Assembly (NCBI RefSeq): GCF_008477545.1
Contig: NZ_VORA01000002.1
Location: 744,001-808,000 of the forward strand
DNA length: 64,000 bases
Origin: Roseibium aestuarii
GTDB lineage: Bacteria > Pseudomonadota > Alphaproteobacteria > Rhizobiales > Stappiaceae
Direction of reading: 5' to 3'
Shown one piece after another: positions 42,979 to 64,000 of the stretch. The position numbers and the translations under genes were made by a program. Position 1 is the first letter of the stretch. The number at the start of each line of letters is the position of its first letter. The notes under the pieces were generated by a model. The model saw only the letters and a program-made list of their open reading frames with translations. It searched no databases and was not told the origin of the DNA.

Positions 42979-43875
42979 ATGGGCGCCACATCCGGCACGC
43001 TGCTGGCTGGTCTCATCGGCAAGGGGATCGCACGGTCCCGCACGCCGGAGATGCACATGGCGGAAGCCGCGGCCCAAGGCCTGCGGGGGGTCTATCGGCT
43101 GATCGACACGGATGCCCTTGCGGAGCGTCTGCCGGGCGCCGTGCCCGCGCTGCCCGATCTCGTGCGCGCCGCCGAGCTCGCAGGCTTTGACGGCCTGAAC
43201 ATCACCTTCCCCTTCAAGATCGAGATCCTGCCGCTCCTCGACGTGCTGTCGGACAATGCCCGCGCCGTCGGATCGGTGAACACCGTCGTCTTCCGGGATG
43301 GCAAGCGCTACGGCCACAACACGGACCTCTGGGGCTATGCGGAAGGATTCCGCCGGGGCATGGAGGGCGCGGTGCGCGAAAGGGTTCTGCTGATCGGCGC
43401 CGGTGGCGCAGGTGTTGCGGTCGCCCATGCGCTCGCCGACTGCGGTGTCCGGCACCTGAAGATCTTCGACATGGACGCGTCCCGGGCCGCCGCCCTTGCC
43501 GAACAGGTCCAGGCCAACCGCCCGGGTCTCGTCGCAGAGGCCATCACAACCCTCGACGCGGTCACGGCCGCCGATCTCGACGGGCTCGTCAATGCCACGC
43601 CGGTCGGCATGGCCAAGTCGCCCGGCATGCCCTGCCCCGCAGAGGTTCTGCGCCCGTCGATGTGGGTCTCCGACATCGTCTATTTCCCGCTGGAAACCGA
43701 ACTTCTGACACGCGCGCGCGCCCTCGGCTGCCGCACCCTGCCCGGCTCCGGGATGGCCCTTTATCAGGCAGTCCGGGCCTTCGAGCTCTTTACCGGTCGC
43801 CCTGCCGATCCGGTACGGATGAAGGCAAGTTTCGATGCCTTCGATACTGTTTCGCAGGAGACTGCGAACGACTGA
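42979..43875 (+). CDS. Quinate/shikimate dehydrogenase, NAD-type, AroE superfamily
   Basis: 298 residues. AroE fold with the catalytic pair K80 (NITFPFKIE) and D116 (GHNTDLWGY), Rossmann motif LIGAGGAGVAVAHAL, and GSGMALYQAVRAFELFTG near the C-terminus. The second Rossmann strand ends in IFDMDASRA: an acidic residue where biosynthetic AroE has the NADPH-binding NRT, as in the NAD-dependent catabolic enzyme of Corynebacterium glutamicum. It opens an operon with a TRAP transporter and dehydroshikimate dehydratase, so oxidation of quinate or shikimate fits better than biosynthesis. GGGAGG precedes the ATG. Confidence 0.82.
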   Translation: MGATSGTLLAGLIGKGIARSRTPEMHMAEAAAQGLRGVYRLIDTDALAERLPGAVPALPDLVRAAELAGFDGLNITFPFKIEILPLLDVLSDNARAVGSVNTVVFRDGKRYGHNTDLWGYAEGFRRGMEGAVRERVLLIGAGGAGVAVAHALADCGVRHLKIFDMDASRAAALAEQVQANRPGLVAEAITTLDAVTAADLDGLVNATPVGMAKSPGMPCPAEVLRPSMWVSDIVYFPLETELLTRARALGCRTLPGSGMALYQAVRAFELFTGRPADPVRMKASFDAFDTVSQETAND

Positions 43876-43897
43876 ACGTCACTTGGGAGGAACTTCA

Positions 43898-44905
43898 ATG
43901 AAATCGATCTTTGCACGGCTTGCCGCCGGCACGCTTCTGTCTCTCGGCCTCGCGGCCACCGCTCACGCCCAGACCATCCGCGTCGCTCACGTGGATCCGG
44001 ACGACTGGACCGCTTCGAAGAAGGGCGCTGCTGCCCATATCTTCAAGAACATCGTCGAAGGTGAAACCGACCTGACGGTCGAGCTCTTCCCCGCCGGCGC
44101 CCTCGGCAACGAAGATGAGCTCGTCGCTCAGGCCATGGACAACGTGACCCAGGTGGTCCTCGTCTCCGGCGCCATGTCCAAGGTCTGCAGCGCGGCCTCC
44201 GTGCTCGACATTCCCTACACCTTCTCCTCCGCGACCGTGGCGTGGAAGGTTCTGGACGGCGAATTCGGCAAGGCGCTTGGCGACCACTGCCTTGAGCAGA
44301 CCGGCCTGCGCACCCTGGCCTATGGCGAGACCGGCTTCCGCAACTTCACCAACAACACCCGCAAAATCCGCAAGCCGGAAGACATGGCGGGCCTGAAGTT
44401 CCGCGTCCAGCCGATCCCGCTCTATCTGGAAATGGTCAGCGGCCTAGGCGGTGAGCCCACCCCGATCGCCTGGACCGAGCTGCCCAACGCCCTGTCCACC
44501 GGCGTGGTCGACGGCCAGGAAAACCCGGTCGGCGTGATCTACAACAACGGCCTGCACAAGCTGCAGAAGTTCATGACCCTCGACGGTCACGTCTATGCGG
44601 CCGACTTCATCCTCATCTCCGACGAGTTCTTCACCGGTCTGAGCGATGCGGAAAAGTCCGTGGTCCAGCGCGCCGCCATCGTGGCCGGCAACATGGGCCG
44701 CTCGATCCAGCAGTGGTCGACCGCTGAGGGCGTGAACAAGGTTCAGGCCGAAGGAATGCAGGTCTACTCCCCGACGGCAGACGAAATTGCCGCCTTCGCC
44801 GCCAAGGCCCAGCCGGCGGTGGTAGAGTATCTGCGCAAGGAACTGGGCGACGATGCCGAATGGATCGATCGCCTGCAGGCCGCCGTCGCCTCGGCCTCCG
44901 AATAA
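43898..44905 (+). CDS. TRAP transporter substrate-binding protein DctP (quinate/shikimate candidate)
   Basis: 335 residues with a Sec signal (LAAGTLLSLGLAATAHAQ). DctP fold: LFPAGALGNEDELVAQAMDN, GETGFRNFTNNTRKIRKPEDMAGLKFRV with the conserved Arg that binds the substrate carboxylate, and ALSTGVVDGQENPV. The ligand is probably quinate, shikimate or dehydroshikimate, judged only from the neighbours. GGGAGGAA precedes the ATG. Confidence 0.9.
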   Translation: MKSIFARLAAGTLLSLGLAATAHAQTIRVAHVDPDDWTASKKGAAAHIFKNIVEGETDLTVELFPAGALGNEDELVAQAMDNVTQVVLVSGAMSKVCSAASVLDIPYTFSSATVAWKVLDGEFGKALGDHCLEQTGLRTLAYGETGFRNFTNNTRKIRKPEDMAGLKFRVQPIPLYLEMVSGLGGEPTPIAWTELPNALSTGVVDGQENPVGVIYNNGLHKLQKFMTLDGHVYAADFILISDEFFTGLSDAEKSVVQRAAIVAGNMGRSIQQWSTAEGVNKVQAEGMQVYSPTADEIAAFAAKAQPAVVEYLRKELGDDAEWIDRLQAAVASASE

Positions 44906-44916
44906 GGCATCTCTGA

Positions 44917-44941
44917 CCTGCCCGGGCCCCGCGCCCGGGCA
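44917..44941 (+). promoter_or_regulatory. Hairpin between dctP and dctQ
   Basis: CTGCCCGGG-N7-CCCGGGCAG, 9-base arms, in the 57-base gap. No T-run. Hairpins here commonly protect the abundant binding-protein message. Confidence 0.5.
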
Positions 44942-44962
44942 GCGTGATCGGGACATACGCAC

Positions 44963-45493
44963 ATGAACATGGTCGGTCTTCTCGCACGCCGGATCTTTGG
45001 TCTGGGCGCCGGACTGTCGATGGCCCTTGTCTTCGCCATCATCTTCATCAATTCCCTGCGCCGCTACACCGTGGGCTCATCCGTCGCCTGGGGCGAGGAA
45101 CTGCCCATCTATCTCACGATCTACGGCGTGATGTTCGGCTGTGCGCTCGCCTATCTCCAGGACCGGCACATCCGCTTCACCATCCTCACCGATCTTCTGC
45201 GACCAGGGATCCGCGACCGTCTCTTTGCAGGCGTCGACCTGCTGACGATTGCCGCCGGCATCGGCCTGATGCTTTCCGGCCACGACTTTGCCAGCCGCCG
45301 CGGCCACATTGCCGCCTCCGGCCTGCGCTCCCTCGGCCAGAGCCTCGCGGAGACGACCGGCATCGAGGCCCTCGAAGGCCTCGCCCGCATCGGCACCTGG
45401 CAATTCGCCATGACGCTCGGCGGCGCCATGCTGGCGCTGGCCGCCCTGATCCGCTTCAGCGAACGCCTGACCGGCGACAAGACGGTGGCCTGA
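44963..45493 (+). CDS. TRAP transporter small permease DctQ
   Basis: 176 residues, four membrane segments. VAWGEELPIYLTIYGVMFGCALAY is the DctQ signature (WxEE...). Pairs with the DctM subunit encoded three bases downstream. Confidence 0.9.
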   Translation: MNMVGLLARRIFGLGAGLSMALVFAIIFINSLRRYTVGSSVAWGEELPIYLTIYGVMFGCALAYLQDRHIRFTILTDLLRPGIRDRLFAGVDLLTIAAGIGLMLSGHDFASRRGHIAASGLRSLGQSLAETTGIEALEGLARIGTWQFAMTLGGAMLALAALIRFSERLTGDKTVA

Positions 45494-45496
45494 CCC

Positions 45497-46771
45497 ATGA
45501 TCTACGCGCTCTTCCTGCTGCTCCTCGTTATCGGCACGCCCATCGCCGTGACCATCTTCGCCACGATCCTGGTCTTCATGGGCTTTGGCGAAGCGCCCTA
45601 TTCCCTGCGCATCGTCGCAACCGAGATGTTCAAGGGGATGAACTCCTTCCCCCTGCTGGCCATCCCGCTCTTCGTGCTGGCCGGGGAAGTGATGAACGAA
45701 AGCGGCATCACCGGCCGCATCATTGCCTTTGCCAACGTGCTGGTCGGCCGCCTGCGGGCGGGCCTTGCCCTCGTCAACATCTGGGCCTCGGTGATCTTCG
45801 CCGGCCTCTCCGGCTCTGCGGTTGCCGACACCTCCGCCATCGGCCGCGTGTTCATTCCCGAAATGGAAAAGCACGGCTACTCGCGCCCCTTCGCGGCCGC
45901 CCTGACCGCGGCCTCTTCGGTCATCGGGCCGATCATCCCGCCCTCGATCCCGGTCATCATCTATGCGCTGATCGTCTCCGGCGTGTCCGTGCCCGCGCTC
46001 TTCCTCGCCGGTGTCATGCCGGGCATCCTGCTGGCGATCTTCCTGTCGGTTTATGTGATGCTGACCGTGAAGGTGGATCGCGGCAATCAGGCCGCCGACC
46101 TCGAGACCGTCTCCCGCCGCTCCGCCGTGCTCGGCGGCATCCTGCCCCTTCTCATGCCCGTCTTCGTGGTCGGGTCGATCCTTCTCGGCATCGTCACCCC
46201 GACGGAGGCCGCCAGCTTCGCCGTCGCCTATGCCCTCTTCCTCGGCATCGTGGTCTACCGCAACATCCGCCTGTCCCGCCTGCCCGCACTCTTTGCAGGC
46301 GCCATGCGCGACAGCGCGATCATCCTCATCATCATCGGTGCCGTCTCGGCCGCAAACTGGCTGCTGACCTATAACCGGGTTCCGAACCTCCTCACGGACT
46401 GGGTGCTGGGCAACGTGGACAGCCAGACCGCCTTCCTGCTGGCCACCATGGCGCTCTTCCTCTTCGTCGGCCTGTTCCTCGAAGGCATTGCCGCCATGCT
46501 GGTGCTGGTGCCGATCCTGCATCCGATCGCCGTGGGCCTTGGCATCGATCCGGTGCATTTCGGCATCCTCGTCATCTTCAACCTGATGATCGGCCTCATC
46601 ACGCCTCCGCTCGGCCTGTGCCTCTTCGTCGCCGAAGGCATCGCCCAGGTCGGCATGGCGCGGCTGACCAGGGCCATCCTGCCCTTCTTCTTCGTCGAGG
46701 TGCTGGTGCTCGCGGTCCTGACCTTCGTGCCTGAGACCGTTCTCTGGCTGCCCCGCGTCCTTGGCTACTGA
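45497..46771 (+). CDS. TRAP transporter large permease DctM
   Basis: 424 residues, about 12 membrane segments. FPLLAIPLFVLAGEVMNESGITGRI, SGSAVADTSAIGRVFIPEM, IIPPSIPVIIYAL and TPTEAASFAVAYAL are the family motifs. Na+-driven uptake, which fits a cell that also makes Na+-NQR. Confidence 0.95.
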   Translation: MIYALFLLLLVIGTPIAVTIFATILVFMGFGEAPYSLRIVATEMFKGMNSFPLLAIPLFVLAGEVMNESGITGRIIAFANVLVGRLRAGLALVNIWASVIFAGLSGSAVADTSAIGRVFIPEMEKHGYSRPFAAALTAASSVIGPIIPPSIPVIIYALIVSGVSVPALFLAGVMPGILLAIFLSVYVMLTVKVDRGNQAADLETVSRRSAVLGGILPLLMPVFVVGSILLGIVTPTEAASFAVAYALFLGIVVYRNIRLSRLPALFAGAMRDSAIILIIIGAVSAANWLLTYNRVPNLLTDWVLGNVDSQTAFLLATMALFLFVGLFLEGIAAMLVLVPILHPIAVGLGIDPVHFGILVIFNLMIGLITPPLGLCLFVAEGIAQVGMARLTRAILPFFFVEVLVLAVLTFVPETVLWLPRVLGY

Positions 46772-53979: not shown

Positions 53980-53989
53980 GGACGACATC

Positions 53990-54859
53990 ATGGACATGCT
54001 TGAACTTCTGAACTTCTACATCATCCCGGGCCTGGTCCTGGGGTCCATCTATGCGCTCGGCGCCATCGGCATCACGCTGATCTACGCCATCCTGCGCTAT
54101 TCCCACCTGGCCCACGGCGATCTGGCAACGCTTGGCGCCTTCATTGCGCTGGCCCTGGTGCAGGCGGGTGCCCCGCTTCTTGTCGCCCTGCCCGCGACCA
54201 TGGCCCTGACCGCCCTGATCGCCATCGGCATCGACAAGGGCTTCTATGCCCATCTGCGCGACCGGCCGAAGATCATCACCGTCATGTCGTCGCTCGGCAT
54301 CGCCCTGATGATCCGCGCCGTGGTGCAGGTCGTCTGGGGCGTGGATGCGGAAACCTATTCGCGCGGCATCGTGCGGCCCGAGGTCTACTGGGGTCTGCGC
54401 ATCAAGGACCGGGAACTCTGGACCCTTGCCTTCCTGATCGCCGCCGTTGTCGTGCTGCAGCTCTTCCTCGCCCGCTCCAAGTGGGGCAAGGCCATGCGCG
54501 CCATGTCCGACAACCCCAACCTGGCGCTGCTGTCGGGCATCGACAACCGCAAGGTCATCATGCTGACCTGGATCATCGCCGGCGGCCTCTGCGCCGCTTC
54601 GGGGGTCTTCCTCGGCCTCAACACCGAGCTCAAGTCCATGATGGGCTGGGGCATGCTTCTGCCCATGTTCGCCGCCGCCGTTCTCGGCGGGGTCGGCCGG
54701 GTCGAGGGCGCGGTTCTCGGCGGGCTGATCGTCGGTCTGGCGGAAGAACTCTCGGTTCTGGTGCTGCCGGGCGAATACAAGGCCGCCATGGCCTTCGCCA
54801 TCCTGCTCTTCATGCTGCTGGTGCGCCCCACGGGGCTGCTCCGCGGCAAGGTCCTTTAA
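53990..54859 (+). CDS. livH: Liv-type ABC transporter permease 1 (LivH-like)
   Basis: 289 residues, about eight membrane helices. NFYIIPGLVLGSIYALGAIGITLIYAILRYSH and the EAA-like loop KAMRAMSDNPNLALLSGID are LivH features; GGVGRVEGAVLGGLIVGLAEE follows. Ten bases after livF. Confidence 0.9.
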   Translation: MDMLELLNFYIIPGLVLGSIYALGAIGITLIYAILRYSHLAHGDLATLGAFIALALVQAGAPLLVALPATMALTALIAIGIDKGFYAHLRDRPKIITVMSSLGIALMIRAVVQVVWGVDAETYSRGIVRPEVYWGLRIKDRELWTLAFLIAAVVVLQLFLARSKWGKAMRAMSDNPNLALLSGIDNRKVIMLTWIIAGGLCAASGVFLGLNTELKSMMGWGMLLPMFAAAVLGGVGRVEGAVLGGLIVGLAEELSVLVLPGEYKAAMAFAILLFMLLVRPTGLLRGKVL

Positions 54860-54872
54860 GGGGGAGACGACG

Positions 54873-55829
54873 ATGGAACTTGCAGGTCTCCTCAACTACG
54901 CCCTCTTCATGGGCATCTTCATCGGCATCTATGCGCTGCTCGCCCTGGGCCTGAACATCCAGTGGGGCTTTGCCGGTCTCTTCAACGCAGGCATCGCCGG
55001 CTTCTTCGCCGTCGGGGCCTACACCTCGGCCATCGTGACGACGGCCGCAGCAGAAGGGCGCATCGGCGGCTTCGACATGCCGCTGCTGCTCGGCTGGCTG
55101 GCGGCCATGGTCGCCGCCGGACTGATCGCCTGGCCGATCGGCAAGATCTGTCTGCGCTTCCGCTCGGACTATCTGGCCATCGCCACCATCGGCGTGGCGG
55201 AAATCATCCGCCTCGTGGTGAAGTCGGAGCCGGAGCTCACCAACGGCGCCCGGGGCATCACCGCCATTCCCCGCCCCTTCGGCGATCTCGACTATGCCCT
55301 GTCGCAGATGGCCTATCTCGCCATTGTCGCCGTCGTGCTGCTCGTCGCCTATCTGATGGTCGAGCGCCAGTTCAACGCGCCCTGGGGCCGCATGATGCGC
55401 GCCATCCGCGACAACGAGCTGGCCGCCCGCGCCATGGGCAAGGCCATCGAGCGTCGGCGGCTGGAGGCCTTCATCTTCGGTGCCGCCCTCATGGGGCTCG
55501 GCGGGGCGCTCTTTGCCCACTTCAACCGTTCGATCACCCCTGAGGCCATCGACCCGATGGTCGCCACCTTCCTCGTCTGGATCATGCTGATCCTCGGCGG
55601 CTCCGGCAACAATCGCGGCGCCATTCTCGGCACCGCCGTGGTGTGGATCATCTGGTCCATGTCGGAGATTGCAACCGACCAGCTTCCGTCCGAATATGCG
55701 GTGAAGGCGAAATACATCCGGCTCTTCCTGATCGGCCTGATGCTGCAGCTCGTGCTCAGGTTCCGTCCCGACGGTCTGCTGCCCGAGCCCCTGCGCGGCG
55801 CGGCCAGATCCGATCAGGACGCCCGATGA
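54873..55829 (+). CDS. livM: Liv-type ABC transporter permease 2 (LivM-like)
   Basis: 318 residues, about nine membrane helices. ALGLNIQWGFAGLFNAGIAGFFAVGAY, RFRSDYLAIATIGVAEIIRL and the loop MRAIRDNELAARAMGKAIE are typical. GGGGGAGA precedes the ATG. Confidence 0.9.
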   Translation: MELAGLLNYALFMGIFIGIYALLALGLNIQWGFAGLFNAGIAGFFAVGAYTSAIVTTAAAEGRIGGFDMPLLLGWLAAMVAAGLIAWPIGKICLRFRSDYLAIATIGVAEIIRLVVKSEPELTNGARGITAIPRPFGDLDYALSQMAYLAIVAVVLLVAYLMVERQFNAPWGRMMRAIRDNELAARAMGKAIERRRLEAFIFGAALMGLGGALFAHFNRSITPEAIDPMVATFLVWIMLILGGSGNNRGAILGTAVVWIIWSMSEIATDQLPSEYAVKAKYIRLFLIGLMLQLVLRFRPDGLLPEPLRGAARSDQDAR

Positions 55830-55834
55830 CAATG

Positions 55835-55858
55835 CGCCGCCGGCAAGAACCGGCGGCG
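55835..55858 (+). promoter_or_regulatory. Hairpin before the binding-protein gene
   Basis: CGCCGCCGG-N6-CCGGCGGCG, directly after the livM stop and about 32 bases before the binding-protein ATG. Likely an mRNA 5'-stabilising hairpin that favours binding-protein expression. Confidence 0.5.
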
Positions 55859-55890
55859 GCAAGTACCCACGTGTGGAGGTAAGTACAGTT

Positions 55891-57093
55891 ATGAAGACCA
55901 AAGCTCTCGCCCTTGTCGGTGGCCTGATGGCCGCAACCGCTCTGGCCGCAGCCCCGGCAAAGGCCGACGTCAAGATCGGTCTGCTCGGCGGCGTTTCCGG
56001 CCCGATCGCGGCCATGGCTCCGGCCATGATCGACGCGGCCCAGCTGGCCTTCGCCCAGGTCAATGAACAGGGGGGCATTCTGGCAGGCGAAAAGCTCGTC
56101 GGCGTGGTCGGCGACAGCGCCTGCAGCCCCCAGGGCGGCACCGACGCGGCCACCAAGGCCGTGAACATCGAAGGCGTGGTGGCCGTGGTCGGCCCCCATT
56201 GCTCCGGTGCTGTGCTCGCCGCTGCAGGCTCCGTGACCGTTCCGGCCGGCATCGCCATGGTGACCCCGTCCGGCACCTCGCCGGAAATCTCCGGCCTGGA
56301 CGACAAGGACACCGTCTTCCGTACCGTGCCCTCCGATGACTATCAGGGCCGTGCGCTCGCCCGCACCCTGAAGGAACAGGGTTACGCCAAGGTCGCCGTG
56401 GCCTATCTGAACAACGACTACGGCACCGGCCTCGCCAATGCCTTCAAGGCCGAGTTCGAAGCCCAGGGCGGCGAAGTCGCAGGCTTTGCAGCCCATGAAG
56501 CCGACAAGGCCTCCTACCGCTCCAACCTGGCCGACCTGTCCAGCGGCGGCGCCGACACCCTCGTCATCTTCGACTACGGCGACGGCACCGGCCTGACCAT
56601 CCTGCGCCAGGCTCTCGAAAACGGCTTCTTCGAGAAGTTCGTTGGCGGCGACGGCATGAAGTCCGACGCCCTGTTCAAGGAACTGGGCTCCGACAACCTG
56701 ACCACCTTCGTCGCTTCCTCCCCGGTTGGCGAGAAGTCTGACGCCCTCGACGTCTTCAACGAAGCCTTCAAGGCGGCTGGCGGCGATCCGGATGCGATCT
56801 TCGTCAACACCTCCTATGACGCCGCCTTCCTGCTGGCTCTGGCCGTGGAAAAGGCCGGTGGCGACAAGGCCGGCGTCGCAGCCGCCCTGCGCGAAGTCTC
56901 CAACGGCGAAGGCGAAGCCATCCTTCCGGGCGAATGGGCCAAGGCCAAGGCGCTGATCGCCGAAGGCAAGGCCATCGACTACAAGGGCGCTGCCGGCGAC
57001 CACAACTTCGACGCCAACGGCGACGTACCGGGCACCTACGCCCTGTTCAAGATCGAAGGCGATGCCTTCACCGTCGTGAGCGAAATGAAGTAA
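55891..57093 (+). CDS. livK: Liv-type ABC transporter periplasmic binding protein (LivK-like)
   Basis: 400 residues with a Sec signal (LALVGGLMAATALAAAPAKA). Type-1 periplasmic fold: VKIGLLGGVSGPIAAMAPAMIDAAQLAFAQVN, VVGPHCSGAVLAAAG, TPSGTSPEISGL, VAYLNNDYGTGLANAF and FVNTSYDAAFLLALAVEKAGG. It is the ligand-specific part of the importer; kynurenine, formylkynurenine or tryptophan are guesses from context. GGAGGT precedes the ATG by ten bases. Confidence 0.9.
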   Translation: MKTKALALVGGLMAATALAAAPAKADVKIGLLGGVSGPIAAMAPAMIDAAQLAFAQVNEQGGILAGEKLVGVVGDSACSPQGGTDAATKAVNIEGVVAVVGPHCSGAVLAAAGSVTVPAGIAMVTPSGTSPEISGLDDKDTVFRTVPSDDYQGRALARTLKEQGYAKVAVAYLNNDYGTGLANAFKAEFEAQGGEVAGFAAHEADKASYRSNLADLSSGGADTLVIFDYGDGTGLTILRQALENGFFEKFVGGDGMKSDALFKELGSDNLTTFVASSPVGEKSDALDVFNEAFKAAGGDPDAIFVNTSYDAAFLLALAVEKAGGDKAGVAAALREVSNGEGEAILPGEWAKAKALIAEGKAIDYKGAAGDHNFDANGDVPGTYALFKIEGDAFTVVSEMK

Positions 57094-57503: not shown

Positions 57504-58628
57504 TCACTCCACCGCAGAACTCAGCCCCATATCGCTCAGAAGCACGCTCTCGCCGGTACGCGCTGCCTCCTGGGCCGCAAGCCCCATCAGGACGGCCATG
57601 CGCCCGTCTTCCAAAGAGACCTCCGGCGCGGCCCGCTGGCCCCGCACCACCTCCAGGAAGCGCTGGTGCTGATAGAAGGTCGAGCCATTGTGGTCGCCCG
57701 CCTCCAGCAGGGTGGGATCGACCGGGATCGGCAGCACGCTCGGTCCCTTGGGATCACGCGGGCTGACGATGACCTGCGGCACCGGCGGCTCGCCCAGATG
57801 CTCGGGCCAGAACCGCCCCGGCCCCGGCACGAGCGCCTCGATCTTGCCCCTGGCGCCCACGGCGGAGATTTCCTCCTGATAGCGGGCCCCTTCGGCGAAC
57901 ATGCAGAGTTCCAGCAGCGCCCGCGCGCCATTCTCGAAGTCGACGATCACATAGCCATGGTCGAGGATGTCCGGCGTCTCCCCGTCATAGCGCTCGTCCA
58001 GATGATTGACCGCCTGCCCGGCGGAGGCCGACACGCGCACCGGCTCGGACTTCAGGATCAGCCGCATCAGATCGAAGAAATGGCAGCACTTCTCCACGAA
58101 GGTGCCGCCCGTGTTGCGGTTGAACCGGTTCCAGTCGCCCACCTTCTGCAGGAAGGGGAAGCGGTGTTCGCGGATGGTCAGCATGCGGATGCCGCCCGTG
58201 GCCTCTTCGGCCCGTGCCAGAAGCTCGGCGACCGGCGGCATGTAGCGATATTCCATCGCCACCCAGATCGGCGCTGGATAGGTGCCGCGGAAGGCGTCGA
58301 GACGCGCCATGTCGGCCGGGTCGGTGAAGAGCGGCTTTTCCACCAGCAGCGGCAGCGGCCGGGCGCGGCGAATCTCCTCCATCTGCTCCACGTGGCGGAA
58401 ATTCGGGCTGGCGATCAGCAGGCAGTCCAGCGCCGGTTCCGCGAGCAGCTCCGCAATGGAGCCGACGAAGCGGGCGCCGGGCACCAGCGCTGCCGCCTTC
58501 TCCCGCATCTGCGCATCCGGCTCGAAGATGACGCTGACCCTCGTGTCGGGCAGAAGCGCGATATTGCGCAGATGTTCCTGCCCCATCATTCCGCATCCGA
58601 TGACCCCGTAATGTGTCACGCTCGGCAT
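57504..58628 (-). CDS. Gfo/Idh/MocA-family oxidoreductase, SqgA-like NAD-dependent glycosidase candidate
   Basis: 374 residues. Rossmann start THYGVIGCGMMGQEHLRNIALL, the family EKP motif (LLVEKPLF), substrate-side residues in TGGTFVEKCCHFFDLMRLIL and HRFPFLQKVGDWNRFNRNTGG. Known members oxidise sugars or inositols; some (GH109, GH188/SqgA) use NAD transiently to hydrolyse glycosides. The neighbours (LLM monooxygenase, aldo/keto reductase, flavin reductase) are the core of sulfoquinovose desulfonation, and SqgA-type sulfoquinovosidases occur in such clusters that lack a classical GH31 enzyme. Placed after the GntR gene on the minus strand. Function as SqgA is inference. Confidence 0.75.
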   Translation of the reverse strand: MPSVTHYGVIGCGMMGQEHLRNIALLPDTRVSVIFEPDAQMREKAAALVPGARFVGSIAELLAEPALDCLLIASPNFRHVEQMEEIRRARPLPLLVEKPLFTDPADMARLDAFRGTYPAPIWVAMEYRYMPPVAELLARAEEATGGIRMLTIREHRFPFLQKVGDWNRFNRNTGGTFVEKCCHFFDLMRLILKSEPVRVSASAGQAVNHLDERYDGETPDILDHGYVIVDFENGARALLELCMFAEGARYQEEISAVGARGKIEALVPGPGRFWPEHLGEPPVPQVIVSPRDPKGPSVLPIPVDPTLLEAGDHNGSTFYQHQRFLEVVRGQRAAPEVSLEDGRMAVLMGLAAQEAARTGESVLLSDMGLSSAVE

Positions 58629-58703
58629 GTCTCACTCCCGTCTGACGGCCGTTTTCCGTCGGCCTTCTTGCTGTGATGTGTTTCAAGGTTCGGGCGCAAC
58701 GCC

Positions 58704-59414
58704 CTATTTCATGCGCTGCACGTAGAGCGCCCTGGAGGCGTCGAACCACGTGCGCGAGAACTCCACCGGCAACTCGTCCTGCGCCCAGCTGAAGCGCTCC
58801 ACGTAGCCGGCAGGCGTCCCGGCGGACAGATGGAACCGCTCGCCGCCCCAGGAGGGAATCGCGGCGACGCCGACCCGATCTTCGGCCCGGGAGATCCAGA
58901 ACCCGAGATGCAGCTTGTAATAGCGGTAGAGACTGTCGGAGAGCTTCGCCGCCTGGATCTCTCCGGCCGATCCGTCCAGCCAGATTTCCTCCAGCGCGAT
59001 CAGCGTTTCGTTCAGGTAGCGCAGGCGCCGGATCCGGCTGGCCCGCTCGGAACGCCCGAACTCTGGCAGATCGTCAGGCTTGCGCATCAGGTCGAGCGAG
59101 ATCACTTCGGCGCGGGGAAGGCCGCCGCCGCCCACCAGCTCCAGCCGGAACATGGAATAGACGCTCGCCACATTCGGCTGGTGGCGGATGTAGTTGCCCG
59201 ACCCCTGCAGCCGCTCCAGCAGCTTCTGCCGTTCCAGCTCCGCCAGCGCCTTGCGCAAGGTGCCGACCGAGATCCCCAGGGAAGCCGCCATCTCCCGTTC
59301 AGGCGGCAGGCGTTCGCCGTCGACAAGCCGCCCGGCGGCGATGTCCCGGATGAGGTTTTCGCTGATCTGAAGATAGATCGGGAGCGCGGTGGCAGACTGG
59401 CTGGGCGGGGTCAT
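58704..59414 (-). CDS. GntR-family transcriptional regulator with UTRA domain (HutC type)
   Basis: 236 residues. Winged helix at about 12-75 (LQISENLIRDIAAGRLVDGERLPPEREMAASLGISVGTLRKALAELERQKLLERLQGSG-type block, with LPPEREMAASLG), then a UTRA ligand domain (about 95-230; LRYLNETLIALEEIWLDG, DRVGVAAIPSWGGERF). HutC-type regulators respond to small sugar-phosphates, sugars or amino acids. Divergent from the monooxygenase operon and upstream of the Gfo/Idh/MocA gene, it probably controls both. Confidence 0.88.
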   Translation of the reverse strand: MTPPSQSATALPIYLQISENLIRDIAAGRLVDGERLPPEREMAASLGISVGTLRKALAELERQKLLERLQGSGNYIRHQPNVASVYSMFRLELVGGGGLPRAEVISLDLMRKPDDLPEFGRSERASRIRRLRYLNETLIALEEIWLDGSAGEIQAAKLSDSLYRYYKLHLGFWISRAEDRVGVAAIPSWGGERFHLSAGTPAGYVERFSWAQDELPVEFSRTWFDASRALYVQRMK

Positions 59415-59422
59415 GGGCTTGC

Positions 59423-59467
59423 GTGACGGTCACATGAAAAAATTGATACACTATTGATCTACATCAA
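59423..59467. promoter_or_regulatory. Divergent control region with a perfect FNR-type box
   Basis: Between the GntR gene and the monooxygenase operon lie GTGAC-G-GTCAC (59423-59433), which could bind the GntR protein, and TTGAT-CTAC-ATCAA (59454-59467), an exact match to the FNR/FixK/Anr consensus TTGAT-N4-ATCAA. The latter is centred about 57 bases before the monooxygenase ATG and 46 bases before the GntR ATG. A further TTGAT half-site is at 59443. Confidence 0.5.
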
Positions 59468-59517
59468 GGCGGATGATACGCAAGAGGAAATCGCACCAAA
59501 ATGACACGGGAGGGGAA

Positions 59518-60672
59518 ATGACCGTCGTACCGGTGACATCCGCCGATCTGGACGCAGCCGAGGTATCCTGGTTCGCAGCACTCTGCTCCGACGACTACCA
59601 GTTTCTCGGCGTACCCGACGGGACGCTCCGCTCGTCCTGGGAGCATTGCTCGCAGATCGTGAAGACTGCCGAAGACCTCGGTTTCCGCAACATCCTGTGC
59701 CCGTCCTCCTATCAGGTCGGTCAGGACACCCTGTCCTTCGTCGCCGGTTGCGCGCCCCTGACGGATCGCATCAACATGCTGGCGGCCGTGCGCTGCGGCG
59801 AGATGCAGCCGATCATGCTGGCCCGCACCATCGCGACCCTCGACCACATGCTGAAGGGCCGCCTGACCGTCAACATCATCTCCTCCGACTTCCCCGGCGA
59901 GAAGGCCGACAGCGCCTTTCGCTACCAGCGCTCGCGCGAAGTGGTGGAGATCCTCAAGCAGGCCTGGACCCGCGACGAGATCAATCACGAGGGCGAGGTC
60001 TATTCCTTCGCCAACGTCTCGACCGATCCCGCCCGCCCCTATCAGACCGGCGGCCCCCTGCTCTATTTCGGCGGCTACTCGCCGGATGCCCTCGAGCTCT
60101 GCGGCCAGCATTGCGACGTCTATCTGATGTGGCCCGAGAAGATGGATGAGCTCGCCGGCCGGATGAAGGCGGTCAATGCCGTGGCCGAACGCTATGGCCG
60201 CACCCTCGACTACGGTCTGCGCGTGCACATGATCGTGCGCGACACCGAGGCCGAAGCCCGTGAATATGCCGACTACATCGTCTCGAAGCTGGACGACGAC
60301 TATGGCCGCGCTATCCGCGAACGCGCCCTCGACGCCGGATCGCTGGGCGTCAGCCATCAGGCAAAGAACCGGGAACTCGCCGACCAGTATGGCTATGTGG
60401 AGCCCAACCTGTGGACCGGCGTCGGCCGGGCCCGCTCCGGCTGCGGCGCCGCCCTCGTCGGCTCCACCGATCAGGTCCTGTCCAAGATCGAGCAATACCG
60501 GAAGATGGGCATGCGCGCCTTCATCTTCTCCGGCTATCCGCATCTGGACGAGGCGAACCACTTCGGCACGAAGGTACTGCCGCAGCTGAAGACCTGCAGC
60601 CTGCCGGAGGCTTACGGCCGCGTGCCCGCCACCACCCCCAACACGCCGCTTGGCGCAGGAGAACGTCGCTGA
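59518..60672 (+). CDS. LLM-class flavin-dependent monooxygenase, sulfonate (SsuD/SmoC)-like
   Basis: 384 residues, bacterial-luciferase TIM barrel that uses FMNH2 and O2. SsuD-like stretches: VKTAEDLGFRNILCPSSYQVGQDTLSFVAGCA, AAVRCGEMQPIMLARTIATLDHMLKGRLTVNIISSDFPGE (substrate/flavin region) and LVGSTDQVLSKIEQYRKMGMRAFIFSGYPHLDEA at the end. Such enzymes cleave C-S bonds of alkanesulfonates to aldehyde plus sulfite; SmoC does so on sulfoquinovose. The aldo/keto reductase and flavin reductase directly downstream complete the pattern. The ATG at 59518 follows GGGAGGGG; 59473 is less likely. Confidence 0.82.
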   Translation: MTVVPVTSADLDAAEVSWFAALCSDDYQFLGVPDGTLRSSWEHCSQIVKTAEDLGFRNILCPSSYQVGQDTLSFVAGCAPLTDRINMLAAVRCGEMQPIMLARTIATLDHMLKGRLTVNIISSDFPGEKADSAFRYQRSREVVEILKQAWTRDEINHEGEVYSFANVSTDPARPYQTGGPLLYFGGYSPDALELCGQHCDVYLMWPEKMDELAGRMKAVNAVAERYGRTLDYGLRVHMIVRDTEAEAREYADYIVSKLDDDYGRAIRERALDAGSLGVSHQAKNRELADQYGYVEPNLWTGVGRARSGCGAALVGSTDQVLSKIEQYRKMGMRAFIFSGYPHLDEANHFGTKVLPQLKTCSLPEAYGRVPATTPNTPLGAGERR

Positions 60673-61562
60673 TGCAGCGGATCGCGATCACCCCGGACTT
60701 CGACTTCAGCCGTCTCGTCTATGGCATGTGGCGGCTCGGCGACGATGCTGATACGTCGCCGGCCCATGTGGAAGCCAAGATCCAGGCCTGTCTGGATCAG
60801 GGTATCACCACCTTCGATCAGGCCGACATCTACGGCGGCTATCAGGCCGAAGCCATTCTCGGCGGCGCGCTGAAGGCCAATCCGGCCCTGCGCCAGCGCA
60901 TGGAGATCGTCACCAAATGCGGCATCGTCGCCCCAGCCGGCCGTCACGCGGCCGCTCAGGTGAAGCATTACGACACCTCCCGCGCCCATATCGAGGCCTC
61001 CGTCGACCAGTCCCTGACCGACATGGGCATCGACACGATCGACCTGCTGCTGATCCATCGCCCCGATCCCTTCATGGATCCGGCCGAGACCGGCGCAACC
61101 CTTGACGGCCTGGTGAAGAGCGGCAAGGTCCGCGCGGTCGGCGTCTCCAACTTCCGCCCCTGGGACTGGGAGCTCCTGCAGGCGGCAATGGAGACCCGGC
61201 TCGCCACGAACCAGATCGAGATCAGCCTCGGCGAGATCCGTCCCTTCACCAATGGGGACTTGGCGTTCCACCAGCGTCACGGTACGCCGCTCATGGCCTG
61301 GTCGCCGCTCGGCGGTGGCAGCCTGATGACCGGGTCCGGCCCGCTCGCTGCCCTGATGGACGAGATCGCCGCCGCACAGGGCGTGGACCGTGCAGCGGTC
61401 GCCATCGCCTTCCTGCTTGCCCACCCGGCCGGGCTTCTGCCGGTTCTGGGAACCAACAACCTGGAGCGTATCGGGCGGATTTCCGAGGCCCTGTCGGTCA
61501 CCCTCGACCGGCAGAGCTGGTTCCGCCTCTATGAAGCAGCCCTTGGATCGGAGGTGCCATGA
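60672..61562 (+). CDS. Aldo/keto reductase (YdhF/SmoB-like)
   Basis: 296 residues. AKR tetrad visible: Asp and Tyr in FDQADIYGGYQAE, Lys in VTKCGI, His in LLLIHRPDPF; NADPH site in GVSNFRPW and PVLGTNNLERI. In the sulfo-SMO pathway an AKR reduces 6-oxo-glucose, the product of SQ desulfonation, to glucose. Its ATG shares a base with the monooxygenase stop and it overlaps the flavin reductase by four bases, so the three are translated together. Confidence 0.85.
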   Translation: MQRIAITPDFDFSRLVYGMWRLGDDADTSPAHVEAKIQACLDQGITTFDQADIYGGYQAEAILGGALKANPALRQRMEIVTKCGIVAPAGRHAAAQVKHYDTSRAHIEASVDQSLTDMGIDTIDLLLIHRPDPFMDPAETGATLDGLVKSGKVRAVGVSNFRPWDWELLQAAMETRLATNQIEISLGEIRPFTNGDLAFHQRHGTPLMAWSPLGGGSLMTGSGPLAALMDEIAAAQGVDRAAVAIAFLLAHPAGLLPVLGTNNLERIGRISEALSVTLDRQSWFRLYEAALGSEVP

Positions 61563-62086
61563 TGTCGATGATGTCCCCGGATCATCCGGTGACCTTCCAG
61601 CCGGATGGTCAGAACACCCGCTTGCTGCGGGACGCCTTTGGGCGCTTCGCCACCGGCGTGACCGTGGTCACGGCGCCTTCGGCGGATGGCCCTGTCGGGA
61701 TCACCGCCAACAGCTTCTCGTCGGTCTCTCTCGATCCGCCACTGGTTCTGTGGGCGCCCGACAAGACCTCGCGCCGCTTCCAGTATTTCGAGGCGGCCGA
61801 GCATTACGCCATCCACGTGCTCAGCAACGAGCAGGCGGCCCTGTGCCAGGGCTTTGCCCGCAACGCCCACGCCTTCGAGGCGCTGGATTTCGGGCTGAAC
61901 GAGCACGGCGTGCCGCTGATCGAAAACTGTCTGGCGCGGTTCGAGTGCGCTAGATTCGCAGCCTATGAAGGCGGCGATCATCTGATCGTCCTGGGTCGGG
62001 TGGTAAAAGCCGAGATGCGGGACGGCGATGCCCTCACCTTCTTCGCAGGAAAGCTGGGACAGGTGCCTCTGCGGGCCGACAACTGA
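61559..62086 (+). CDS. Flavin reductase-like protein (FMN partner of the monooxygenase)
   Basis: 175 residues of the flavin reductase-like (HpaC/split-barrel) family: LRDAFGRFATGVTVVTAPSADGPVGITANSFSSVSLDPPLVLWAPDK-type start (GITANSFSSVSLDPP is diagnostic) and FHG-like ending replaced by FFAGKLGQV. It should supply reduced FMN to the LLM enzyme, the SmoA role. Confidence 0.88.
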   Translation: MMSMMSPDHPVTFQPDGQNTRLLRDAFGRFATGVTVVTAPSADGPVGITANSFSSVSLDPPLVLWAPDKTSRRFQYFEAAEHYAIHVLSNEQAALCQGFARNAHAFEALDFGLNEHGVPLIENCLARFECARFAAYEGGDHLIVLGRVVKAEMRDGDALTFFAGKLGQVPLRADN

Positions 62087-62090
62087 AGCT

Positions 62091-62120
62091 CCCTTGCGCC
62101 GGTGGACGCACCGGCAAGGG
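62091..62120 (+). promoter_or_regulatory. Hairpin between the enzyme genes and the TRAP genes
   Basis: CCCTTGC ... GCAAGGG outer arms and CCGGTG/CACCGG inner arms, starting four bases after the flavin reductase stop. No T-run. It may set different levels for the enzymes and the transporter. Confidence 0.45.
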
Positions 62121-62174
62121 GGATGGAATGGGTCGCGCCGCGGGAGGAGCCGAAGCGCGACAGGGAGGACCGGA

Positions 62175-62768
62175 ATGACATTGCTCTTGGCACTCGCCAG
62201 GGTTCTCGGCGCGCTCAATGCCGCCGCACTGACGCTCGGCCGTTGGCTGGGCGCCGCCTGCATCGGCGCGATGGTGGTGATCATCCTCGTGCAGGTGCTG
62301 TTCCGCTATGGTCTGGGCAATGCCCTGCCCTGGACGGAGGAGGCCGCCCGCTTCCTCATGCTCTGGATGACCGGCCTGATGGCACCCACCGCCTTCCGGC
62401 GCGGCGGCTTCGTCAGCGTCGACATGGTGGTGAGCATGCTGCCCCGCGCTGCCGCCGGGCTCGTCTCGCTCCTGCTGCTCTGCCTCGTGGCCCTCGTTCT
62501 CTGGAAGGGCGTGCTGATCGGCTGGTCCGAGGTGACCGGCTTCGGCGGCCGCTTCACCATGGCCGCCATCAAGGTTCCCGTCAGTCTTGACCTCAGCAAG
62601 TGGATGTCCATTCCCCGCAGCTGGATGCTGGCCTCGCTCGCCATCGGCGTCACTGCCATGTTCTCCGTCTGCCTGGAGCTGATCCTGCGCGCCCTCGTCG
62701 TGCTGACCGGCGGGCGCGACCGCCTGCCGCCCATCGCGCTGACCCATACCACCCTGGGAGCGGAATGA
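62175..62768 (+). CDS. TRAP transporter small permease DctQ
   Basis: 197 residues, four membrane segments. LFRYGLGNALPWTEEAARFLMLWMTGLMAPTAFRRGGFVSVDM is the DctQ pattern. GGGAGGA lies upstream of the ATG. No DctP gene precedes it, so the binding protein is probably downstream beyond the window. Overlaps DctM by four bases. Confidence 0.9.
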   Translation: MTLLLALARVLGALNAAALTLGRWLGAACIGAMVVIILVQVLFRYGLGNALPWTEEAARFLMLWMTGLMAPTAFRRGGFVSVDMVVSMLPRAAAGLVSLLLLCLVALVLWKGVLIGWSEVTGFGGRFTMAAIKVPVSLDLSKWMSIPRSWMLASLAIGVTAMFSVCLELILRALVVLTGGRDRLPPIALTHTTLGAE

Positions 62769-64000
62769 TGCTGAGCCTGTTCCTGCCGCTCTTCCTCGTC
62801 TTTCTCATGCTCGGCCTGCCGATCGTCTTCGGTCTGGTCGCCGCCCCTGCCCTTCTCCTGTGGTGGAACGGTCAGGAGCGCGACATCGTCCTGCTCTACC
62901 GCAACATCTACAACGGGATGGACAGCTTCCCGCTGATGGCGATCCCCTTCTTCATGCTGGCGGGCGAACTGATGAACCGGGCGGGCATCACCCTGCGCCT
63001 GGTGGAATTCGCCCAGGCGGTGATCGGCCATCTGCGCGGCGGCCTCGCCCACGTGAACATCCTCTCTTCCATGCTATTTGCCGGTCTGTCAGGATCCGCG
63101 GTGGCCGACGTATCCGCTCTCGGCTCCATGCTGATCCCGGCCATGGAAAAGCAGGGCTACAGCACCCGCTTTGCTGCAGCTGTCACGGCTGCCTCCTCCA
63201 TCATCGGCCCGATCATTCCGCCTTCCGGGATCATGATCATCTACGCCTATGTCATGGGCGAGAGCGTCGCCGCCCTCTTCCTCGCCGGCATCGTGCCCGG
63301 GGTCATGATCGGCGGCAGCCTGATGCTCATCGTCCGGCTTCTGGCCGACAAGGAGAACCTGCCCCAGGCCACCCGCCGCGCCACATGGGGCGAACGTGGC
63401 AAGGCGAGCCTCAATGCCTTCTGGCCGCTGATGACCCCGGTCATCATCATGGGCGGCATCCTGGGCGGGGTCTTCACCCCCACGGAAGCCTCTGCGGTCG
63501 CGGCCGGCTATGCGCTGCTCATCGGCCTCTTCGTCCTGCGCAGCCTCAAGCTGAAGGACATCCCGGACGTCTTCATGCGCTCCGGCCTGACCTCCGCCGT
63601 GGTGCTGCTGCTGGTGGGCGCCGCCATGGCTTTCAAGACGGTGGCCAGCCTGTCGCACACGCCGGAGCTGCTGGCGGAAATCATCCTGGGCCTGTCCGAC
63701 AACCCGCTGGTCCTGCTGTTCCTGATCAACATCCTGCTGTTCATCGTGGGCATGTTCCTGGACGCCGGCCCGGCCATCATCATTCTCGGCCCGATCCTCG
63801 GTCCGATCTTCCTGTCCATGGGCATCGACCCGGTGCATTTCGCCATCGTCATGGCGGTGAACCTGACCGTCGGTCTGCTCACCCCGCCCATGGGGCTCGT
63901 GCTCTTCGTCACCTCGTCTGTCTCCCGCCTGCGGGTGGAGACGGTGGCCCGCGCGACTTTCCCGTTCCTGTTGGCCGAGATCGCGGTGATCTTCCTGATC
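62765..64000 (+). CDS. TRAP transporter large permease DctM (3' end outside window)
   Basis: At least 412 residues, open to the window end. DctM motifs: FPLMAIPFFMLAGELMNRAGITLRLVEFA, SGSAVADVSALGSMLIPAMEKQGY, IIPPSGIMIIYAYVM and TPTEASAVAAGYALL. Start MMLSLFLPLF at the DctQ stop. Likely imports the substrate of the monooxygenase pathway. Confidence 0.93.
   Translation, partial: MMLSLFLPLFLVFLMLGLPIVFGLVAAPALLLWWNGQERDIVLLYRNIYNGMDSFPLMAIPFFMLAGELMNRAGITLRLVEFAQAVIGHLRGGLAHVNILSSMLFAGLSGSAVADVSALGSMLIPAMEKQGYSTRFAAAVTAASSIIGPIIPPSGIMIIYAYVMGESVAALFLAGIVPGVMIGGSLMLIVRLLADKENLPQATRRATWGERGKASLNAFWPLMTPVIIMGGILGGVFTPTEASAVAAGYALLIGLFVLRSLKLKDIPDVFMRSGLTSAVVLLLVGAAMAFKTVASLSHTPELLAEIILGLSDNPLVLLFLINILLFIVGMFLDAGPAIIILGPILGPIFLSMGIDPVHFAIVMAVNLTVGLLTPPMGLVLFVTSSVSRLRVETVARATFPFLLAEIAVIFLI

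What the first reader, a model, noticed from the sequence alone, without database searches (positions are those of the whole stretch)
57504..64000. Possible sulfo-SMO (sulfoquinovose desulfonation) cluster with an SqgA-like glycosidase and a TRAP importer
Seen: GntR regulator and Gfo/Idh/MocA gene divergent from LLM monooxygenase, aldo/keto reductase and flavin reductase (overlapping), then TRAP permeases. Known: sulfo-SMO uses an LLM sulfonate monooxygenase (SmoC), flavin reductase (SmoA) and AKR (SmoB); the described Agrobacterium system has an ABC importer and GH31 SQase, while NAD-dependent SqgA (GH188) enzymes of Gfo/Idh/MocA type occur in clusters without GH31. Inference: this cluster is a variant using SqgA and a TRAP transporter, a combination I do not know to be described.
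Basis: partly seen in the sequence, partly recalled or inferred. Interest (0 to 1): 0.72.

Follow-up and report, generated by a model that had tools for sequence, protein, structure and literature searches.

The report
Marine sulfoquinovose-degrading operon with TRAP importer
This is an operon of a marine-type alphaproteobacterium related to Roseibium that very probably takes up plant and algal sulfolipid sugar, frees it, strips off its sulfonate and leaves glucose; the enzymes are a known kind and the same layout is common in relatives, so it is mostly ordinary, with the importer as the one untested part.

Summary
Eight genes in the order sqgA-gntR <> smoC-smoB-smoA-dctQ-dctM-dctP run from 57504 to about 65141; the window ends inside dctM and dctP lies just past it. 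SmoC is 82% identical to the best solved chain, SmoB 67.5%. SqgA keeps the nine GH188 active-site and sulfonate residues checked. In two relatives a GH31 sulfoquinovosidase stands where sqgA stands here, beside a 79%-identical SmoC, which ties the cluster to sulfoquinovose without relying on database labels. Likely mechanism: TRAP uptake of sulfoquinovose or its glycerol glycoside, NAD-dependent cleavage by SqgA, desulfonation by SmoC with SmoA, reduction of 6-dehydroglucose to glucose by SmoB. A conserved palindrome between the divergent genes is the probable GntR site. The novelty claim mostly fails: SqgA in sulfo-SMO clusters is published as near-universal in Roseobacters (PMC10755693), and 64 of the 80 nearest loci kept carry SqgA plus TRAP. 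I found no paper on the TRAP part in the library searched, but two key papers were not held. New member of a known kind; the TRAP ligand is the open point.

The parts
57504..58628 (-). sqgA: NAD-dependent sulfoquinovosidase, GH188 type (Gfo/Idh/MocA fold), 374 aa
   Evidence: phmmer 570 bits to 8zn9 (69% identity), 354 to 8qc2; nine active-site and sulfonate residues kept
58704..59414 (-). gntR: GntR/UTRA transcription regulator, 236 aa; probable sulfosugar-responsive repressor
   Evidence: PF00392 and PF07702; same place in most relatives classified; function inferred
59443..59467 (.). conserved probable operator TTGAT-N6-TTGAT-N4-ATCAA between the divergent genes
   Evidence: one match in the whole genome; palindrome upstream of smoC in 60 of 80 near loci and 20 of 78 sampled loci, against 2 sites in 1.58 Mb and 7 in 1.31 Mb of the remaining DNA; 23 of 25 columns at least 80% kept in 81 aligned sequences, against 14 of 65 in the rest of the intergenic stretch
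59518..60672 (+). smoC: FMNH2-dependent sulfoquinovose monooxygenase, 384 aa
   Evidence: 82% identity to 7olf, 736 bits against 200 for SsuD; 79% to the SmoC beside a GH31 sulfoquinovosidase in L243
60672..61562 (+). smoB: aldo/keto reductase, probable 6-dehydroglucose reductase
   Evidence: 433 bits, 67.5% identity to 7bbz against 222 bits for E. coli YdhF
61559..62086 (+). smoA: flavin reductase supplying FMNH2, 175 aa
   Evidence: PF01613; 50% identity to the flavin reductase of the L243 cluster; its assignment as SmoA rests on position, no solved chain is close (best 162 bits; below the FerA cut-off)
62175..62768 (+). dctQ: TRAP small permease
   Evidence: PF04290; same gene after smoA in relatives
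62765..64000 (+). dctM: TRAP large permease; runs past the window to 64057
   Evidence: PF06808, 398 bits, on the contig; dctP follows at 64083-65141 with a terminator-like hairpin after it

Best explanation
A complete sulfo-SMO (sulfoquinovose monooxygenase) operon of the type common in marine relatives. Inferred route: the DctPQM TRAP importer brings sulfoquinovose (SQ) or its glycosides, chiefly sulfoquinovosyl glycerol, into the cytoplasm; SqgA cuts the glycoside by transient oxidation at C3 with bound NAD+; SmoC, fed FMNH2 by SmoA, splits the C-S bond and gives sulfite and 6-dehydroglucose; SmoB reduces that to glucose, which enters central metabolism. The GntR protein represses the two divergent transcripts from the site at 59443-59467 until a sulfosugar binds. 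Shown here: gene identities, residues, synteny, conserved site. Inferred: substrates, directions, regulation.
For: Sequence identity and score gaps; the nine GH188 residues in 150 of 150 SqgA rows of at least 300 bits, own included; SmoC, SmoB and a flavin reductase adjacent, which meets the SmoB+SmoC criterion used in PMC13372026 (passages); GH31 sulfoquinovosidase (1203 bits to 5ohy, 731 to 5aed, labelled sulfoquinovosidase) in the sqgA place of L243, and a GH31 protein 94% identical to it in the same place of L244; the only GH31 match of the own genome is glucosidase-like, 251 bits to a glucosidase II chain against 97 to YihQ, so SqgA is the only sulfoquinovosidase candidate found; DctP orthologues 62-94% identical in 42 loci (chosen of 103 to be diverse) while the best DctP paralogue found in the parts of the own genome read here scores 135 bits; the DctP model's first solved match is the isethionate (sulfonate) binder IseP; operator.
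Against: No activity, growth or binding was tested. The PDB labels of 7olf, 7oh2, 7bbz and 7bby do not say SmoC or SmoB; that they are is recalled, and a paper search for 7OLF, 7OH2, 7BBZ and 8ZN9 found none. SmoA has no close solved relative. IseP leads the fold list by a margin that means little (2.1e-19 against 3.8e-19 for a sialic acid binder), and by sequence 4p47 is ahead of IseP. The DctP model is of middling confidence (mean pLDDT 77, under 50 at 203-229). TRAP was not found in 16 of 80 near loci (some end early, one holds a masked stretch) nor in 37 of 78 sampled loci, so it is replaceable. The exact palindrome is missing from 20 of 80 and 58 of 78. No sigma-70 consensus at the operator.
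Confidence: 0.87

Rival explanations
1. The enzymes are as described, but the TRAP importer carries something else, for example another sulfonate such as DHPS or a sugar acid, and SQ enters by another route.
For: TRAP binders for isethionate and DHPS are solved and are relatives; the transporter slot holds ABC genes or no importer that my queries recognised in many loci.
Against: DctQ, DctM and DctP orthologues follow smoA in the same order in 57 of 72 near loci with full flanks and 33 of 73 sampled ones; L055, L060 and L084 have an ABC importer with a sugar-type binder in the same slot (binder of L055 PF01547).
Confidence: 0.2
2. The substrate is a different 6-sulfosugar or its glycoside, such as sulfofucose, handled by the same chemistry.
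For: Sulfofucose is a real bacterial substrate (PMC12421959, passages); the residues checked in SqgA fix the sulfonate more than the sugar's stereochemistry.
Against: GH31 sulfoquinovosidase occupies the sqgA slot in L243; the sulfofucose pathway in that paper is a different one, ending in sulfolactate sulfolyase.
Confidence: 0.06
3. An SsuD-type alkanesulfonate scavenging operon with an inositol dehydrogenase-like neighbour.
For: NCBIfam's best named models are alkanesulfonate monooxygenase and inositol 2-dehydrogenase.
Against: Both fall far below those models' cut-offs (247 of 518 bits, 91 of 355), and the closest chains are other families.
Confidence: 0.01

Closest known systems
Sulfo-SMO pathway of Agrobacterium (SmoA, SmoB, SmoC; also called sulfo-ASMO)
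   Same: SmoC, SmoB and SmoA homologues side by side; GntR gene and glycosidase gene divergent from smoC, as in the GH31-bearing loci L243 and L244.
   Different: GH188 instead of GH31 glycosidase; TRAP instead of the ABC transporter described for Agrobacterium (PMC9594981, passage).
Roseobacter-clade sulfo-SMO clusters with SqgA (GH188)
   Same: Same enzymes; PMC10755693 reports near-universal GH188 in Roseobacter sulfo-SMO clusters (Results section read). Same gene order in Ruegeria, Shimia, Phaeobacter italicus and others.
   Different: Host is near Roseibium. The main text of that paper does not contain 'transport' or 'trap' at a word start; its figures and supplement were not seen.
TRAP importers of other sulfonates (isethionate IseP; DHPS binder 24gc)
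   Same: DctP family and fold.
   Different: 24% identity to IseP in the fold alignment; a different, sugar-enzyme context.

Membership tests
sulfo-SMO pathway | SmoB and SmoC homologues within a few genes, with a flavin reductase (SmoA) | tested here: met
   Adjacent genes 59518-62086; criterion from PMC13372026 (passages). SmoA by family and position only
sulfo-SMO pathway | SmoC groups with known SmoC and apart from SsuD, SfnG, NtaA, RutA | tested here: met
   736 bits against 200, 92, 37, 30; identity of 7olf/7oh2 as SmoC is recalled, but L243 links the family to a GH31 sulfoquinovosidase
sulfo-SMO pathway | Sulfite and glucose made from SQ | not testable with these tools
   Needs enzyme assay or growth test
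GH188 (SqgA) | Active-site Lys107, Tyr136, Glu189, His193, His321 (ArSqgA numbers) | tested here: met
   K98, Y127, E179, H183, H313; 150 of 150 rows, mapping by hand; residues from PMC10755693. The residue called Glu163 there fits E154 only if the number is read as 164
GH188 (SqgA) | Sulfonate triad Arg166, Leu170 (backbone), Lys172 | tested here: met
   R156, L160, K162; 150 of 150 rows
GH188 (SqgA) | NAD-dependent cleavage of SQ glycosides | not testable with these tools
   Needs assay
DctP-type TRAP transporter | DctQ, DctM and DctP-family binder encoded together | tested here: met
   PF04290, PF06808, PF03480
DctP-type TRAP transporter | Ligand is SQ or its glycoside | not testable with these tools
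   Only gene neighbourhood and fold neighbours
GH31 sulfoquinovosidase | A YihQ-type GH31 protein in the genome | tested here: not met
   Single GH31 match, glucosidase-like: 251 bits against 97 for YihQ

The most novel reading that the evidence does not exclude
The smo-linked DctPQM is a dedicated TRAP importer for sulfoquinovose and sulfoquinovosyl glycerol, a main entry route for sulfolipid sugar in Roseobacter-type bacteria and Roseibium, and importers have been exchanged (TRAP against ABC) again and again around a stable enzyme core, while SqgA against GH31 changed once in this sample.
Probability: 0.6. Interest if true: 0.4.

Novelty: new member of a known kind. Interest (0 to 1): 0.22.

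Why it matters
[quoted passage not shown] Enzymes of this pathway are known; a TRAP carrier for a sulfosugar, if shown, would be a marker gene for uptake of sulfolipid sugar in sea-water surveys and would explain how a cytoplasmic NAD-dependent glycosidase gets its substrate.

Tried and rejected
Considered and rejected: inositol dehydrogenase for the Gfo/Idh/MocA gene and nitrilotriacetate or pyrimidine monooxygenase for the LLM gene. A GH31 sulfoquinovosidase elsewhere in the genome: the one GH31 gene, beside another TRAP gene at about 710-714 kb of contig 14, is glucosidase-like. A sigma-70 promoter at the operator: none by consensus. A paper that names 7OLF, 7OH2, 7BBZ or 8ZN9: none in the library. 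TRAP in the SQ literature: searches (46 papers, 40 listed, most of them unrelated by title); the passages of PMC11659671 and PMC10504371 use 'trap' in other senses, PMC12421959 proposes an ABC importer for sulfofucose, PMC10507020 and PMC6386719 were seen only in listings. A search with Roseobacter genus names gave 135 papers, 20 listed, none of the 20 with the word sulfoquinovose. So absence from print is not shown. The DctP structure model gave the fold and little about the ligand.

Set B (80 stretches, L177-L256) was picked by me from hits, leaning to long contigs, not at random; 51 are from one family (that of G214). No contig length is shared between A and B, so I saw no double counting, but species were not compared otherwise. 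L235 and L236 were picked and then dropped from the count because their SmoC-like gene is under 400 bits. A neighbour had to lie within 7.5 kb: L184, counted as without SqgA, has one further off. 'Other' for the transporter means that my queries found none over threshold; several of these have permease hits (L187, L226, L229, L233, L255). The tree used 107 of 146 rows with full flanks (most near TRAP rows thinned), a quick method, and 39 of 104 inner branches are weak; with the label 'other' kept in, the transporter needs 35 changes, and with loci without a glycosidase kept in, the glycosidase label needs 9.
Full report
What is there. The window lies on contig 14 of a 4.35 Mb genome. The finding's genes are all present and open: a Gfo/Idh/MocA gene and a GntR gene on the minus strand, and on the plus strand an LLM monooxygenase, an aldo/keto reductase, a flavin reductase, DctQ and DctM. 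The window ends inside dctM. The contig continues with DctP and then a terminator-like hairpin of 12 pairs with a T run at about 65171-65200, so the unit smoC-smoB-smoA-dctQ-dctM-dctP has a likely end. smoC/smoB, smoB/smoA and dctQ/dctM overlap by one to four bases.

What the proteins are. SqgA: 570 bits and 69% identity to 8zn9, 354 bits to 8qc2 and 8qc3, and 59 or less to the other solved chains listed. That 8QC2 is a GH188 structure is stated in PMC11465081 (part 1 of 2 of its text read). The residues that PMC10755693 gives for ArSqgA (Results section read) map by the alignment to K98, Y127, E154, R156, L160, K162, E179, H183 and H313, and all nine are kept in 150 of 150 SqgA rows of at least 300 bits, own row included. 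PMC11465081 reports 96-98% conservation of the sulfonate residues in the family; this protein has the common Leu form. SmoC: 736 bits and 82% identity to 7olf, against 200 bits for SsuD, 92 for the dimethylsulfone enzyme and 37 or less for nitrilotriacetate and pyrimidine types. SmoB: 433 bits and 67.5% to 7bbz, against 222 for YdhF. SmoA is a flavin reductase by family, with no close solved chain (162 bits at best) and below the cut-off of the best named model; its role rests on its place. That 7olf/7oh2 are SmoC and 7bbz/7bby SmoB is recalled; their labels do not say so, and a text search for 7OLF, 7OH2, 7BBZ and 8ZN9 found nothing.

An independent tie to sulfoquinovose. Because of that weak point I looked for a link that needs no label of SmoC. 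In two genomes of another family in the same order (L243, L244) the gene in the sqgA place, next to gntR and divergent from smoC, is GH31. The one from L243 scores 1203 bits to 5ohy and 731 to 5aed, which is labelled sulfoquinovosidase; the one from L244 is 94% identical to it. The L243 SmoC is 79%, SmoB 66%, GntR 60% and SmoA 50% identical to the window's. So a known type of sulfoquinovosidase stands in the place that sqgA holds here. The own genome has a single GH31 match, and it is glucosidase-like.

How common it is. Among the 80 nearest loci kept of 589, 78 have SqgA and 64 have SqgA plus TRAP; with full flanks, 57 of 72 show the exact eight-gene order. Among 78 counted loci of my wider, hand-picked sample, 68 have SqgA, 41 have TRAP (38 with SqgA), 12 ABC, 2 GH31, and 8 no glycosidase within 7.5 kb; 33 of 73 with full flanks have the exact order. 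SmoC itself is in 17 of 19 genomes of the own genus searched, 22 of 61 of genus and family together, and 87 of 198 genomes of the family that holds G214. On a quick SmoC tree of 107 rows, the 75 rows labelled TRAP or ABC need 10 changes, at least 7 forced by well-supported branches; 100 shuffles gave 11 to 15, mean 14. SqgA against GH31 needs one change, but only 2 rows are GH31, and with loci without a glycosidase counted the label needs 9. The importer slot is thus exchanged often around a steadier enzyme core.

Regulation. Between gntR and smoC lies TTGATACACTATTGATCTACATCAA (59443-59467). The palindrome TTGAT-N4-ATCAA occurs once in the window, where 0.04 is expected; the longer pattern occurs once in the genome, here. 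The palindrome is found upstream of smoC in 60 of 80 near loci and 20 of 78 sampled ones, against 2 sites in 1.58 Mb and 7 in 1.31 Mb of the remaining DNA. In 81 aligned upstream regions 23 of its 25 columns are at least 80% kept (17 at least 90%, lowest 49%), against 14 of 65 columns in the rest of the intergenic stretch. It is the natural candidate for the GntR site. No sigma-70 consensus was found there.

The importer. DctP, DctQ and DctM are the standard TRAP parts. The smo-linked DctP proteins form a close set (42 others, chosen of 103 for diversity, at 62-94% identity), far from the best DctP paralogue found in the parts of the genome that I read (135 bits). The AlphaFold model (mean pLDDT 77) has the isethionate binder IseP as first match, but a sialic acid binder follows at once, and by sequence 4p47 comes first. 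Since SqgA needs NAD+ it must work inside the cell, so the importer must carry the glycoside; this is inference.

What is known. PMC10755693 states that GH188 is near-universal in Roseobacter sulfo-SMO clusters and that these lack GH31. For TRAP, four searches gave no paper that I could see to tie it to SQ, but Sharma et al. 2022 and Liu et al. 2023 were not held, supplements were not open, and figures are not held, so I cannot say that it is undescribed. Verdict: a well-supported member of a known kind, with an untested importer that is worth one binding assay.

Noticed in passing
window 43823-46768: A second TRAP set (DctP-like frame 43823-44902, DctM-like frame 45494-46768); the DctP-like frame is the best paralogue of the smo-linked DctP found here (135 bits).
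   Followed up: no
L099:7518-11191 (G000 contig 14, about 710-714 kb, outside the window): A GH31 glucosidase II-like gene directly after another TRAP DctM gene: an alpha-glucosidase beside a TRAP importer.
   Followed up: partly
L235:7179-11161 and L236:5984-9123: A second SmoC-like branch (about 52% identity) in other alphaproteobacteria also sits with SqgA-like and SmoB-like genes; in L235 a ROK-family sugar kinase follows, which fits glucose as product.
   Followed up: partly
L080:12580-13479 and 7 further loci (L049, L089, L197, L237, L239, L242, L251): A gene family in smo clusters, usually after smoA; the L080 member has a weak acetyl xylan esterase match (PF05448, 27 bits). A guess: a deacylase for acylated sulfoquinovosyl glycerol.
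   Followed up: no
L055:17478-18467 and other loci: A PF03601 (YeiH-like) membrane protein near the cluster in 9 of 72 and 9 of 73 loci with full flanks; possible sulfite or sulfate exporter. None in the parts of the own genome read here.
   Followed up: partly
window 53984-57093: Two branched-chain amino acid type ABC permeases (PF02653) and a periplasmic binding protein (PF13458) on the other side of sqgA; probably a separate unit.
   Followed up: partly
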